From the NCBI RefSeq assembly GCF_015529805.1, contig NZ_CP064654.1, forward strand, positions 1 through 64,000: a stretch of 64,000 bases of DNA, read 5' to 3'. Positions 5,171 to 42,641 of this stretch are shown piece after piece (the stretch's first letter is position 1; every line of letters begins with the position of its first letter). The position numbers and the translations under genes were made by a program. This stretch comes from Qipengyuania soli. GTDB lineage: Bacteria; Pseudomonadota; Alphaproteobacteria; Sphingomonadales; Sphingomonadaceae. Below the pieces are notes generated by a model. The model had not been told where the DNA came from. It saw only the letters and a list, made by a program, of their open reading frames with translations, and ran no database searches.

Positions 5171-6274
5171 ATGTCGGTAAAGTCAGCCTTGGCGAAATTG
5201 GCGGCAACTGCGGCGGGCGGGGCGCTCGTTGCGGGCGGCGCCGTCCACGTTGCGGAAAAGCCGATCACCGACAATCCGCAGTACAAGACCAAGATGGTCA
5301 AGCAGGTGAAGCAGGCCAAGCCGGTCAAGCGCGCGATCCCGCGCCGTCCGGTCCAGGCAAAGCGCACGATCCCGCCGCGCCCGGTGCAGTGCGTGCCCGC
5401 CGATTCGCCGCAGGCCGCCTACAATCCCGACAACATCTGCCCGCCCGTCTATCGCGAGGCGATGGTCCCTGTTCCCGTTCCGCCGCTGCCGCAGGCTCCG
5501 GTCGTTTCGGGTAGCGGCGGCGCCTCGCGCTCGATTCCGGGCGGTGGTTATGGTGGCGGCTACGGCGGCGGTTTCGGAGGCGGTTTCTTCGGCGGTTTCT
5601 TCGGCGGTTCGAGCGGCGGCAGCGTGATCGTCAATTCGACCACCACCACCGGCGGCGAACCTCCCGTGGTCAACATCTCGTCCACGACCTCGACGGGCGG
5701 CAGCTCCACCTCCACCGGAGGCAGCTCCACTTCGACTTCGACCGGCGGCAGCTCGACCTCGACTTCGACGGGCGGCATTACCTCGACCACCAGCACGGGC
5801 GAGGTTTCCAGTTCGTCGTCGACTTCGACCAGCACGGGCGCTGTCTCGACCTCCACGGGTTCGGTTTCGACCTCGACCGGCGGCGTCTCGACTTCGACCG
5901 GGAGCGTTTCGACCTCGACCGGTAGTGTTTCGACCTCCACCGGCCAGGTCAGCAGCACGACGACCAGCTCGTCCTCGGGCGATGTCAGCTCGTCGACTTC
6001 CAGCTCGACCTCGGGCGACGTGAGCACCTCGACCTCGACGTCCACCTCGACCTCGACTTCGGGCAATGTCACCAGCAGCACCAGCTCGTCGAGCTCAACC
6101 TCGACCAGCTCGTCGTCGAGCACCTCGACCTCGAGCAGCTCGTCGACCTCGGGTTCGACCACCGGCAGCAGCAGCGGCACCGACGTGCCTGCGCCGCCGA
6201 TGATGGCGCTGTTCGGCATGGCGGCCGCCGCGATCCTCGGCCGGCGCAAGCTGCGGGTGAAGCGCGGGGCCTGA
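5171..6274 (+). CDS. PEP-CTERM-type surface protein with Ser/Thr repeat stalk
   Basis: 367 residues in four zones: (1) a hydrophobic Ala/Gly signal region to about residue 30; (2) a basic Lys/Pro/Arg stretch with repeated RPVQ motifs; (3) a Gly-rich patch of GGGYGGG/GGFFGGF units at about 115-150; (4) a stalk of some 180 residues made almost only of Ser, Thr, Gly and Val. The C-terminus reads VPAPPMMALFGMAAAAILGRRK, that is a VPxP motif, a transmembrane helix and a basic cluster. This is the tripartite PEP-CTERM sorting signal cleaved by exosortases. The stalk is a likely target of O-glycosylation in the matrix outside the cell. The start is set by AGAGGG upstream. No exosortase gene is in this window. 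Confidence 0.8.
   Translation: MSVKSALAKLAATAAGGALVAGGAVHVAEKPITDNPQYKTKMVKQVKQAKPVKRAIPRRPVQAKRTIPPRPVQCVPADSPQAAYNPDNICPPVYREAMVPVPVPPLPQAPVVSGSGGASRSIPGGGYGGGYGGGFGGGFFGGFFGGSSGGSVIVNSTTTTGGEPPVVNISSTTSTGGSSTSTGGSSTSTSTGGSSTSTSTGGITSTTSTGEVSSSSSTSTSTGAVSTSTGSVSTSTGGVSTSTGSVSTSTGSVSTSTGQVSSTTTSSSSGDVSSSTSSSTSGDVSTSTSTSTSTSTSGNVTSSTSSSSSTSTSSSSSTSTSSSSSTSGSTTGSSSGTDVPAPPMMALFGMAAAAILGRRKLRVKRGA
5846..5950 (+). repeat. Five in-frame 21-bp tandem repeats in the Ser/Thr stalk
   Basis: Five consecutive 21-base units, each encoding a heptad of type STSTG-x-V, begin at 5846, 5867, 5888, 5909 and 5930. The units differ mainly at third codon positions and at the sixth residue (S, G, S, S, Q). The surrounding stalk (about 5640-6170) is made of looser STSTGGSS and SSTSTS blocks. 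In-frame unit gain or loss would change stalk length without breaking the gene. Confidence 0.85.
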
Positions 6275-36623: not shown

Positions 36624-38636
<2,013 letters not shown>

Positions 38637-40361: not shown

Positions 40362-40973
40362 CTATTCCCCGGGAACCAGCTTCTCCACCAGCGCCCTGAG
40401 TTCACTCGGCGTTGTATGCCCTGCGACGACCTCGTGATACCCGATCCCCGCTTTCCTTAGTGCTTCCTTCTTCACCGCGTCGCGGGCGGCGGCGTTGCCC
40501 TGGTGGTGGCCGTTGCCCTGGTATTCGAGAGCGTGGCGCACGCAGCATTTCTCGTCCATCAGCGCGAAATCGACGCGCTTCGAGTTGACTGCGAAATAGG
40601 CGCTGCGGTTGGGGGAGGAGAGGAACTCACCTAGCGAGACCTGCGCCATCACCTGCCATTTCGGATTGCGGGCGATCACCGCCTCGTCGAGCGCCTTGAA
40701 CACCGCTGCCTCGGGCCGGTTGAGCAAGGCGCGCGACTTGAAGTCCGCGCCCATGACCGTGCGCAACTGGTCCGCCGCCGAGGCCAGCGCGGGGTCTTCG
40801 CCCGCCTGCGGCATGACTTTCTGTTCGGGTCGATAACCACCTCGGCGCTTCCGATAATATCGCTTCTTGCCGCCGCCCGATATCTCCTTCGCAACGAACA
40901 CGACCGCCACAACGACGAACAAGAAAACAAGAAGCGGATTGCTCAATACTTTGGAGAATAGCTCTTCGACCAT
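40362..40973 (-). CDS. DUF2726 nuclease-like membrane-anchored protein
   Basis: 203 residues. An N-terminal membrane helix VFLFVVVAVVFVAKEI and a basic stretch KKRYYRKRRGGYRPEQK are followed by a DUF2726 domain: LLNRPEAAVFKALDEAV, KWQVMAQVSLGEFL, then KRVDFALMDEKCCVRHALEYQGNGH (Asp...Glu-x-Gln pattern) and RDAVKKEALRKAGIGY. This is the PD-(D/E)xK-like nuclease/winged core of the family, tied to the membrane. Lies next to the AT-rich unit but has host-like GC. Confidence 0.82.
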   Translation of the reverse strand: MVEELFSKVLSNPLLVFLFVVVAVVFVAKEISGGGKKRYYRKRRGGYRPEQKVMPQAGEDPALASAADQLRTVMGADFKSRALLNRPEAAVFKALDEAVIARNPKWQVMAQVSLGEFLSSPNRSAYFAVNSKRVDFALMDEKCCVRHALEYQGNGHHQGNAAARDAVKKEALRKAGIGYHEVVAGHTTPSELRALVEKLVPGE

Positions 40974-41070
40974 GATTCGGCCTCCCGATTCAGAAACCTA
41001 GTCGCAATTGCCGTTGGAAGAACAGGTTATTTCTTTCCTACACCCCTCCATCCGTGCCTAAGCTCGCCGG

Positions 41071-41394
41071 ATGGACCATCCCGCACCCCCTCCTGCTCGC
41101 CCGAAGCCCGACAACACCCGCTGGACGGGGGAGAAGGCCTCAATCTTTCTCAAGCTTCTCGGGCGCTCGGGCAAGGTGGCGGCTTCGGCGCGGGCCGTGG
41201 GGATGAGCCGGCAGGCGGCCTATCGCCTGCGCGCGCGGGCGCCGCGGTTTGCCGAGTACTGGGACATGGCGATGGAGGTGGCGGCGAAGCGCAAGGCCTC
41301 CTCGCGGCGGGGACGCAAGCCGGTCCATCCGCTGCTCGACAAGCGGCCCCTGCCGAGCCCTGCCAAGGGTGACAGGCGGGCGCGCAGCAGGTGA
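41071..41394 (+). CDS. HTH-domain protein with repeat-encoded tail
   Basis: 107 residues. A helix-turn-helix of the TrfA/terminase-small-like sort: WTGEKASIFLKLLGRSGKVAASARAVGMSRQAAYRLRARAP at about 18-58, where VAASARAVGMSRQAAYRLR is the HTH. Then a basic tail (RKASSRRGRKP, KGDRRARSR). No family name can be given with certainty. The last nine codons and the TGA stop are part of a repeating GTGAC array that continues for 180 bases beyond the gene, so the 3' end may have been longer in an ancestor. Confidence 0.7.
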   Translation: MDHPAPPPARPKPDNTRWTGEKASIFLKLLGRSGKVAASARAVGMSRQAAYRLRARAPRFAEYWDMAMEVAAKRKASSRRGRKPVHPLLDKRPLPSPAKGDRRARSR

Positions 41395-41578
41395 CGGCGG
41401 TGCGGCCTCGCGGTGACGCTTTCAGCGCGCGCAGGGTGACGGGCGGGCCTCGTCGGGTGACGGCTCGCGCGGGGAGGGTGACAATCCGCTGCGCAGGGTC
41501 ACGCTTTTGCGCTCCAGAGTCACGGAAGGCGCGGAATTTCTTCTGGACCGTGTTCCACCTGTTCCACCTGCGGGTGAC
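41369..41578 (+). repeat. Array of GTGAC/GTCAC boxes, ~21-bp period
   Basis: Boxes begin at 41369, 41391, 41413, 41436, 41457, 41478 (GTGAC), 41498 and 41519 (GTCAC), then 41574 (GTGAC). Successive distances are 22, 22, 23, 21, 21, 20, 21 and 55 bases, with GGGTGAC or CGGTGAC as the common extended core. The run lies in the 3' end of the HTH gene and the 287-base gap to the sulfotransferase gene. A 9-base tandem TGTTCCACC x2 lies near its end (41551). Confidence 0.8.
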
Positions 41579-41681
41579 ACATTCGCCTACCCGCAATTGC
41601 CCCTGTCGCTTGCGGCGAGCCTCGTTATGATGCGAAAAACGGGCCGCGCCATGCATTCACTCGGGGGAGGGGAAAGCCGCC

Positions 41682-42641
41682 ATGCAGCAAGCTCGACTGG
41701 TCCGTCCGGCCACGCGCCACGTTCGTTCGCTCATCTTCGACAGCGCAGGATGGGACGACTTTCCCGTACGCAGCGACGACATCGTCATCTCCACCTATGC
41801 CAAGTGCGGGACGACCTGGACGCAGCGCATCGTCGGCTCGCTGGTCTTCGGCAGCGCCGCGCCCTTTCCGGTGCAGGACAGCTCGCCCTGGCCCGATTTC
41901 CGCATGCCGCCGCCGGGCGCAATGATCGCGCTGGGGGAATCGCAGACGCACCGGCGCTTCCTCAAGTCGCACCTGCCGTTCGATGCGCTGCCGGTCTACG
42001 AGGGAGTGAAGTTCATCCACGTCGCGCGCGACGGGCGCGATGCAGCGATGAGCCTCTACAACCACAAGCTTCATTACACCCCTTTCACGGTCGAGCGGAT
42101 GGAGGAATTGAATCGCGAGGATCCCAAGTTCGGCGGCGAGCACGTCCCCTTCGTGCCCGAGGGCGGGCCGGGCCAGCACTTCCATGACTGGCTGCATGGC
42201 TGGGAAAACGCGATGGGCGACGAGGGTGCGAACTACTGGGTGATGGAGAACAGCTTCTGGGCCGCGCGGCGCGATCCGAACGTCCTGCTGGTCCATTTCA
42301 ACGACCTCAAGGCCGATCGCGAGGGCGAGATGCGAAGGATCGCCGGATTCCTCGGGATCGACATCCCCGAAACCCTGTGGCCCGAACTGGTCGAAGCGGC
42401 GGGGTTCGATGCGATGAAGAAGAAGTCCGGCGACCTGCTGCCCAATGCGGTGAACATCTGGAAGGGCGGTGGCGATACTTTCATCAACAAGGGCACCAAC
42501 GGCCGCTGGCGCGATGTCTACGACCCTCAGGACCTCGCCGATTACGACCGCATGGTCGCCGCCGAGTTCAGCCCTTCGCTCGCCGCATGGTGCGAGGGCG
42601 GCAGGCTGGTCGCCGGCGATCCGCGCGAGTTGCCCGATTGA
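41682..42641 (+). CDS. Sulfotransferase domain protein
   Basis: 319 residues. PAPS-binding signatures of cytosolic-type sulfotransferases: 5'-phosphosulfate loop STYAKCGTTWTQRIV (about 33-47), 3'-phosphate region HVARDGRDAAMSLY (Arg/Ser) and the C-terminal INKGTNGRWRDV, corresponding to RKGxxGDW. KSHLPFDALP is the catalytic-base area with His. It transfers sulfate to a hydroxyl of an alcohol, phenol or sterol-like acceptor. Alone in its neighbourhood; the acceptor cannot be inferred. Confidence 0.92.
   Translation: MQQARLVRPATRHVRSLIFDSAGWDDFPVRSDDIVISTYAKCGTTWTQRIVGSLVFGSAAPFPVQDSSPWPDFRMPPPGAMIALGESQTHRRFLKSHLPFDALPVYEGVKFIHVARDGRDAAMSLYNHKLHYTPFTVERMEELNREDPKFGGEHVPFVPEGGPGQHFHDWLHGWENAMGDEGANYWVMENSFWAARRDPNVLLVHFNDLKADREGEMRRIAGFLGIDIPETLWPELVEAAGFDAMKKKSGDLLPNAVNIWKGGGDTFINKGTNGRWRDVYDPQDLADYDRMVAAEFSPSLAAWCEGGRLVAGDPRELPD

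What the first reader, a model, noticed from the sequence alone, without database searches (positions are those of the whole stretch)
41369..41578. Regular ~21-bp array of GTGAC boxes running from the end of an HTH gene
Nine GTGAC/GTCAC boxes occur, eight of them at distances of 20-23 bases, about two DNA turns. The HTH gene's stop codon lies inside the second box. Two readings are possible. First, a cooperative operator bound by the encoded HTH protein. Second, decay of a coding repeat: boxes 2, 4, 5 and 6 fall in one frame (GGT GAC, Gly-Asp) and box 1 in the HTH frame, so small indels would have broken an ancestral tail of heptads containing Gly-Asp. Either would be a little-described feature of this HTH family.
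Basis: partly seen in the sequence, partly recalled or inferred. Interest (0 to 1): 0.75.

Follow-up and report, generated by a model that had tools for sequence, protein, structure and literature searches.

The report
Phased box array after phage-like regulator
A small phage-like DNA-binding gene in a marine bacterium is followed by eight evenly spaced copies of a short DNA box; related bacteria keep the boxes and sometimes carry such an array in front of other genes, so it is probably the docking site of a little-known family of regulators, although no binding has been tested.

Summary
The array is real: eight GTSAC boxes, 41369-41519, steps 22, 22, 23, 21, 21, 20, 21; the ninth (41574) is outside. 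GTCAC is not inverted: all eight are direct repeats of CARGGTSACRC with a variable middle base. The protein is homologous to the DNA-binding domain of phage terminase small subunits and lacks the rest. In a tree of 102 family members, arrays occur in 38 of 41 rows of one clade and 3 of 61 others. Boxes are conserved more than spacers. RNA structure finds no support. The coding reading is half right: some relatives translate the array, yet the DNA box is what persists. HTH-less arrays precede other genes; one is conserved in two species (boxes 73%, spacers 35% identical), and a genome whose HTH-linked array has a changed box carries that changed box before lpdA too. Best reading: an operator-like array, probably bound by this HTH family; binding and regulation are inferred. 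Against: G004 has an array without a clade gene seen, G033 lacks the adjacent array, G022 keeps the array beside a broken HTH gene, and SF6 terminase showed little preference for its repeats. Searches cited found no published description.

The parts
41034..41060 (+). promoter-like element TTTCCTAC-N14-GCCTA, starting 37 bases before the ATG; no Shine-Dalgarno seen by eye, perhaps a leaderless start
   Evidence: T[TGC][TC]CCTAC at this place in 54 of 66 distinct HTH-family loci (the start codon was chosen to favour it); sequences; function inferred
41071..41394 (+). HTH gene, 107 aa, homologous to the DNA-binding domain of phage terminase small subunits; ends in box 2
   Evidence: phrog_4044 in 15 of 15 members; model best PDB match Sf6 terminase small subunit, Z 8.5, rmsd 1.5 over 60 residues
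41365..41376 (+). box 1 (AAGGGTGACAGG), coding, Lys-Gly-Asp
   Evidence: PWM score 13.1 at -183 from the end motif core
41387..41398 (+). box 2, holds the stop codon TGA
   Evidence: stop inside GTGAC in 26 of 32 array loci
41409..41420 (+). box 3
41432..41443 (+). box 4
41453..41464 (+). box 5
41474..41485 (+). box 6
41494..41505 (+). box 7, centre C (GTCAC), same orientation
41515..41526 (+). box 8, centre C (GTCAC), same orientation; its GTCAC starts 33 bases before the end motif core
41543..41568 (+). end motif CTGGACCGTGTTCCACCTGTTCCACC, a 9-base direct repeat; its core is dispersed in the genome
   Evidence: core GTTCCAYNTGTTCCA 15 times in this genome, 0 for the reversed-pattern control
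   Evidence: 55 bases from box 8, out of register
41682..42641 (+). next gene, sulfotransferase (Sulfotransfer_1), same orientation; not the neighbour seen in relatives
   Evidence: Pfam; neighbours in relatives differ

Best explanation
The array is a DNA-level binding platform, operator-like, for the protein of the gene that it follows or a close paralogue. Shown: eight direct-repeat boxes about two helical turns apart; box conservation above spacer conservation; restriction of the trait almost entirely to one clade of terminase-small-subunit-like HTH proteins; array copies before other genes, also in genomes where box and HTH subclade differ from the window's. Inferred: several HTH protomers bind the boxes side by side on one face of the DNA, and this nucleoprotein acts on transcription around the end motif, both at the HTH gene's own 3' end (autoregulation or control of read-through) and before other genes: lysK, a folP-like, a saccharopine-dehydrogenase-like, a ruvA and a ridA-like gene, and lpdA in G003.
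For: Tree of 102 HTH domains: array in 38 of 41 rows of one clade (support 86/90) and 3 of 61 outside; 7 changes needed, 32.2 on average when shuffled, 0 of 500 as low. HTH-blind test: an array pattern in 397 genomes gave 42 places in 37 genomes; of the 30 places fetched, 14 are arrays by a PWM made from 15 array loci (one is the window itself), in 14 genomes of 10 genera, all among the 22 with the best HTH matches (E <= 1.5e-19); none of the other 16 fetched places is in one of those 22 genomes except the chance that a genome has both (none here). Seven genomes with a match were not fetched; none is among the 22. Two of the 14 (L044, L050) have only two PWM units. Box identity 82% (411/501) against spacer 59% (320/543), box above spacer in 12 of 12 pairs, which share loci. 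HTH-less array before the same gene in G000 and G015: boxes 73%, spacers 35%, no gap in 118 columns. Single steps: 21 in 52 of 103, mean 21.1, with 19-23 allowed by the search. HTH-less arrays at 687k and 2809k of this genome (553k short), 729k and 791k in G015, and about 0.85 kb downstream of the HTH gene in G033. Subclade L012, L014, L076 (helix AYALRAR or AYSLRAR) has box CAAGCCGAC, and G003, the genome of L012, carries an HTH-less six-unit array of that box (one unit degenerate) before lpdA, steps 21, 21, 21, 21, 20, seen in none of the other 19 lpdA regions. In SPP1 and P22 the pac site lies in or across the start of the terminase small subunit gene (PMC4737164, PMC9611059, passages).
Against: No binding or expression data. 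The SF6 terminase domain bound pac DNA weakly and with little preference for the repeats (PMC4737164, passages). G004 has a 7-unit array (L283) but no array-clade HTH was seen in it. G033 keeps the HTH gene without the adjacent array; three of 41 clade rows have none. In G022 the array stands beside an HTH gene that has lost its helix region and frame. Helix residue alone does not set the box: L107 (AYSLRAR) and L068 (AYPLRAR) have the usual box. Like boxes within one genome may also come from copying of the module. Neighbours after the array differ in kind and, by ORF picks in unannotated GC-rich DNA, in strand. End motif copies without array are the rule, so most of the module does not need the HTH protein. 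The logo is of units chosen by GTBAC. Homology is of one domain only.
Confidence: 0.58

Rival explanations
1. Another protein (a nucleoid or stress regulator, or a paralogue outside the clade) binds the boxes, and the HTH gene is only a frequent neighbour.
For: Arrays without HTH gene exist; G004 has an array and no array-clade HTH seen; G022 keeps the array beside a broken HTH gene; end-motif module in 32 of 33 congeners.
Against: Arrays track one HTH clade; the HTH stop codon lies inside a box in 26 of 32 array loci; changed box in HTH locus and lpdA array of the same genome.
Confidence: 0.2
2. Mobile module: TTTCCTAC and CTGTAGGA are ends of a short dispersed element; the HTH copy is the full form and the short copies are internal deletions, as MITEs are of a transposon.
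For: Copy number varies: exact core 15 in G000, 24 in G015, 6 in G033, 1 in G018, by model 15, 27, 23, 13; end motif letters differ between genomes and some congeners lack the element at lpdA and lysK.
Against: Interiors are not alike between copies (by eye); 11 of 15 copies point to a gene start close by, by my reading; the element sits at the same place before lpdA in 12 of 20 and before lysK in 11 of 20 congeners by regular expression, which suggests inheritance; no clean empty site or target duplication seen; no transposase by sequence or fold.
Confidence: 0.1
3. Coding relic: the array is the remnant of a C-terminal tail of Gln-Gly-Asp heptads, broken by small indels in this lineage and without a DNA function.
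For: Array translated in L116, L012, L199, L189 and partly in L119, L120, L014, L076; box 1 in the window is in frame as Lys-Gly-Asp; 52 of 103 single steps are multiples of 3.
Against: Boxes stay conserved after the stop codon while spacers do not; CAA in 26 of 29 in-frame Gln codons; conserved arrays before genes without any HTH ORF; frame-breaking 20-base step where the array is translated.
Confidence: 0.06
4. RNA element: the 3' region of the HTH mRNA folds into a regulatory structure built of the repeats.
For: The region would be transcribed with the HTH gene; a unit can be drawn as a short hairpin.
Against: Window array folds no better than shuffles (z +0.75, 149 of 200 shuffles at least as stable); units fold no better than shuffles and no pair stands out; consensus fold -3.6 kcal/mol, covariation -0.08, 2 of 11 pairs with a two-sided change; no Rfam match at the array.
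Confidence: 0.03
5. Packaging site: the array is a pac or cos-like site used by a prophage or gene transfer agent.
For: The protein is homologous to the terminase small subunit DNA-binding domain.
Against: No phage family above cut-off among 11 neighbouring proteins scanned; one has no match and the S30EA protein has a sub-cut-off baseplate match. The one Terminase_6N match in the genome is at 2406 kb (other large-terminase families not searched). Length and model leave no room for the oligomerisation and large-subunit parts.
Confidence: 0.03

Closest known systems
Phage terminase small subunit with its pac site (Sf6 gp1 structure; SPP1 and P22 pac)
   Same: homologous DNA-binding domain; repeats or recognition site lie in or beside the protein's own gene (SPP1: three sets of direct repeats across the promoters and start of the gene; P22: 22 bp inside the gene; PMC4737164 and PMC9611059, passages)
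   Different: only the DNA-binding domain is present; no large subunit or virion genes nearby; array at the 3' end of the gene; eight units in two-turn phase; arrays also before other genes
Iteron arrays of plasmids and secondary chromosomes (recalled)
   Same: direct repeats of about 20-22 bp next to the gene of the binding protein
   Different: no replication initiator among the neighbours scanned; on the 2.9 Mb main contig
Multi-box transcription operators with boxes in helical phase (recalled)
   Same: short boxes on one face of the DNA, cooperative binding likely
   Different: array follows the regulator gene and overlaps its stop codon
Transposase site arrays at Tn7 or IS21 ends (recalled, not tested)
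   Same: repeated sites at about 20-22 bp
   Different: no transposase among the neighbours scanned; one array, not two ends

Membership tests
phage terminase small subunit (TerS) | N-terminal HTH DNA-binding domain of TerS type | tested here: met
   phrog_4044 in 15 of 15 members, window E 5.5e-11; Sf6 TerS best fold match, Z 8.5, next family 6.6, though Foldseek E in the PDB is only 0.7; BFVD TerS E 4.9e-4; Rhodobacter phage TerS 41% over 51 residues, E 4e-4
phage terminase small subunit (TerS) | central oligomerisation domain and C-terminal segment that binds the large subunit | tested here: not met
   107 residues; model has four helices ending at residue 81 and a low-confidence tail. So it is filed as a homologue of the domain, not as a terminase subunit
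phage terminase small subunit (TerS) | lies with large terminase and virion genes | tested here: not met
   neighbours scanned: ThiC, DUF3644, one without match, DUF2726, sulfotransferase, VTT (below cut-off), SpoIIAA-like, dioxygenase, S30EA, L-PSP, EthD; Terminase_6N only at 2406 kb
pac-type recognition site | repeats near the terS-like gene that its protein binds | tested here: inconclusive
   repeats and position seen; binding not testable with these tools
transcriptional operator array | boxes conserved above their spacers, in helical phase | tested here: met
   82% against 59% over 12 pairs; 73% against 35% in an HTH-less array; mean step 21.1 within the 19-23 allowed
transcriptional operator array | controls transcription of a neighbouring gene | not testable with these tools
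   needs expression data
C-terminal coding repeat | frame kept through the array | tested here: not met
   stop codon inside a box in 26 of 32 array loci; steps of 20, 22 and 23
structured RNA element | stable or covarying fold | tested here: not met
   no Rfam match at the array
iteron replication origin | adjacent replication initiator gene | tested here: not met
   no initiator family among the neighbouring proteins scanned

The most novel reading that the evidence does not exclude
A family of domesticated phage terminase DNA-binding domains works as transcription regulators in Sphingomonadaceae (Qipengyuania, Erythrobacter and relatives): each regulator gene carries its own pac-like, two-turn-phased array grown from its stop codon, and arrays in a promoter - short ORF - array - end motif module have placed other genes under its control, with box and protein changing together between subclades.
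Probability: 0.33. Interest if true: 0.8.

Novelty: new variant of a known kind. Interest (0 to 1): 0.63.

Why it matters
How terminase small subunits recognise DNA is called unclear and controversial in the review PMC9611059 (passages). A single-domain homologue with a conserved array of cognate-looking boxes, in free-living bacteria with named cultured relatives, would be a simple system in which that recognition can be measured. It would also show a packaging protein's domain turned into a chromosomal regulator, and would begin to explain a dispersed regulatory-looking module of this genus for which I found no name.

Tried and rejected
Inverted-box reading of GTCAC: rejected, same flanks in the same orientation. 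RNA hairpin per unit: no pairing excess, no fold excess, no Rfam match at the array. Leader-peptide reading of the end motif: different copies use different frames (sequences, read by eye). Sigma-70 promoter and intrinsic terminator in 40900-41800: none found. Relatives on plasmids: no match; in viral contigs: 11 stretches, none confirmed; in phages: two Rhodobacter phages, and no array in the 5.2 kb round terS of the one looked at. Solved structures by sequence: none at E <= 1. Pfam and NCBIfam: nothing above a curated cut-off for the window protein; a weak ModE match in 6 of 15 members was not pursued. IS21/Tn7-end resemblance: recalled only, not tested. Mobility at lpdA and lysK: the rows with a minus-strand match (8 of 20 and 9 of 20) were printed on the wrong strand; one search repeats all 40 in the right orientation. 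It shows the element in 12 and 11 of 20 by regular expression (L228 and L237 have degenerate forms beside these), and absence in others without a clean junction.

Literature: the two end-motif strings and the box string are in 0 papers of the library; with a promoter string added, 37 papers, of which the 20 listed hold only that short string and are unrelated by title. Sphingomonadales with direct repeats and HTH: 0 papers. Erythrobacter with terminase terms: 16 papers, 10 listed, none on this. Iterons and helical phase: 8 listed, none on this. Qipengyuania with repeat terms: 2,772 papers at two terms, 8 listed, so nearly uninformative. Only passages were read in PMC4737164, PMC9611059 and PMC6854486; the last says that the R. 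capsulatus gene transfer agent's TerS lacks the HTH domain. All other papers: listing only.

Caveats on counts: array labels join two rules (a GTBAC chain of 3 or more; or a repeated 11-base chain of 4 or more above shuffles with at least two CARG-type boxes). 102 of the 115 loci entered the tree; the tree has 67 columns, many weak forks and an unsettled bootstrap. Of the three arrays outside the clade, L048 is clear, L122 and L124 are weak. Orphan-array control: best model hit of 25 congeners (L261-L285); G003 and G023 among them have the other-box clade; of the remaining 23, one (G004) has an array. One hit a genome was looked at there; L260 is from G033, which has the HTH gene; G008 and G001 (one weak match each) were not fetched and G009 had no match. 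The match list is cut.

Full report
What is there. The window is bases 1-64000 of the one contig (2.91 Mb) of its genome. Named relatives with the gene are Qipengyuania, Erythrobacter, Aurantiacibacter and Actirhodobacter; G018, of the same genus as the window, has the contig length and place of Q. citrea. The HTH gene (41071-41394) is followed by eight boxes at 41369-41519 with steps 22, 22, 23, 21, 21, 20, 21. Chance does not give this: longest chain 8, against 1-2 in 40 simulations, and at most 5 for any 5-mer in 12.

Anatomy. Arrays of relatives show one directional unit, CARGGTSACRC(TT), repeated in the same orientation; the middle base is G, C or sometimes T, which explains the mixture of GTGAC and GTCAC. 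The last box stands 32-33 bases before the core of an end motif, CTGGACCGTGTTCCAYGTGTTCCAY, in the copies measured in this genome. A promoter-like TTTCCTAC starts 37 bases before the ATG; 54 of 66 distinct HTH-family loci have it or a near form there. The HTH stop codon is the TGA of a GTGAC box in 26 of 32 loci with three or more boxes.

The protein. Pfam and NCBIfam give nothing above cut-off. PHROGs puts all 15 members tested in a terminase small subunit family. The model (mean pLDDT 78; helices 20-33, 36-42, 47-56, 58-81) matches the Sf6 terminase small subunit best among solved structures: Foldseek E 0.7, Z 8.5 with rmsd 1.5 over 60 residues; CoREST chains follow at 6.6, and the tool warns that middling Z is common for helical folds. 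In the viral library the best named match is a terminase small subunit, E 4.9e-4. Two Rhodobacter phage terminase small subunits are found by sequence. Only the DNA-binding domain is present.

Who has the array. In 102 HTH domains, 38 of 41 rows of one clade have an array and 3 of 61 others: 7 changes, 32.2 when shuffled, 0 of 500 as low; near-copies and 67 columns limit the tree. An HTH-blind pattern search of 397 genomes of the family gave 42 places in 37 genomes. Of the 30 places fetched, 14 are arrays by a PWM made from 15 array loci, of which one is the window. The 14 genomes, of 10 genera, are all among the 22 best for the HTH profile; the other 16 places are not arrays. The 7 genomes not fetched are outside the 22.

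Selection. Over 12 pairs of related loci boxes are 82% and spacers 59% identical, box above spacer in all 12; box columns were taken from one member of each pair, and pairs share loci. Where the array is translated (L116, L012, L199, L189, partly L119, L120, L014, L076), the peptide is Gln-Gly-Asp or Gln-Ala-Asp heptads; the Gln codon at boxes is CAA 26 times and CAG 3 times. The base rate is 128 to 394 in long window ORFs; in ORFs of five of those loci it is 60 to 77, array included. Copying of units could add to this bias.

Arrays elsewhere. A sequence-only model of about two and a half units plus the end motif was run on 33 genomes of the genus: 32 have 1 to 34 matches, mostly to the end-motif half in the part of the list shown. 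Matches with confirmed phased units are at the HTH locus of G000, G015, G018 and G022 and at HTH-less places: 687k (class I lysyl-tRNA synthetase) and 2809k (saccharopine-dehydrogenase-like) in G000, with one or two units at 553k (pterin-binding enzyme); 729k (RuvA) and 791k (saccharopine-dehydrogenase-like) in G015; and about 0.85 kb downstream of the HTH gene before an L-PSP protein in G033. The 2809k and 791k arrays stand before similar genes and share register: boxes 73%, spacers 35%, no gap in 118 columns. Of 23 congeners without a known array-clade gene, the best model hit has no array in 22; G004 is the exception.

Box and protein. The subclade L012, L014, L076, with helix AYALRAR or AYSLRAR, has CAAGCCGAC in place of CAAGGTGAC. 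G003, the genome of L012, also has an HTH-less array of six units before lpdA, four exact CAAGCCGAC, one with one change and one degenerate, steps 21, 21, 21, 21, 20; none of the other 19 lpdA regions compared has it. This is what a shared trans factor predicts, but copying of the module inside one genome would give the same. The helix residue alone does not set the box: L107 and L068 differ there and have the usual box.

What speaks against. In G033 the HTH gene lacks its adjacent array; in G022 the array stands beside an HTH gene without its helix region and frame; G004 has an array and no clade gene seen. Genes behind the array differ. The SF6 terminase DNA-binding domain showed little preference for the repeats of its pac site (PMC4737164, passages). 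In the end-motif module the array is optional: of 15 copies in this genome three have a phased array, one has one or two units and 11 have none in phase.

Mechanism. Shown: a phased, conserved DNA array tied to one clade of terminase-like HTH proteins and reused before other genes. Inferred: the protein binds it cooperatively and the complex acts on transcription around the end motif.

Verdict. No description was found by the searches listed.

Noticed in passing
G000 at 408.8k, 552.9k, 686.9k, 720.7k, 930.6k, 974.0k, 1062.7k, 1122.4k, 1242.3k, 1507.6k, 1516.7k, 1663.3k, 1791.5k, 2809.1k; window 41552: Dispersed end motif GTTCCAYNTGTTCCA, 15 copies and 0 in the control; 11 of 15 shortly before a gene start by my reading, 9 of 15 with TTTCCTAC or TGTCCTAC 110-250 bases upstream. 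Genes behind it look like lysK, ppdK, lpdA, sdhB and maiA (names recalled from the sequences except lysK). The motif letters differ between genomes.
   Followed up: partly
L085, L080, L087 (G000, G033, G015): A lysozyme-like gene (name recalled, not from a call) in three congeners shares the TTTCCTAC element, and its reading frame holds Asp-Arg-Val-Pro-Cys-Val-Pro or a variant, which is the end motif translated.
   Followed up: no
L231 (G003), 0.1-0.2 kb before lpdA, minus strand of the locus: HTH-less six-unit array with the changed box CAAGCCGAC in the genome whose HTH gene L012 has the same changed box in its coding tail.
   Followed up: partly
L283 (G004:C1:474906-477988): Seven-unit CAAGG array inside an ORF behind a TTTCCTAC element, in a genome without an array-clade HTH gene seen.
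   Followed up: partly
L010 (G022:C2): HTH gene with the helix region deleted and frame shifted, array and end motif kept.
   Followed up: partly
G117:C1:4087429 and 6115944: Two identical clusters of GTGAC boxes with other spacing in a 6.6 Mb genome of the family, perhaps a mobile element.
   Followed up: no
window 36651-36759: TPP riboswitch before thiC (36795-38636), just above the Rfam threshold.
   Followed up: no
window 5296-6175: Dense degenerate tandem repeats with periods from 6 to 96 bases, 21 among them.
   Followed up: no
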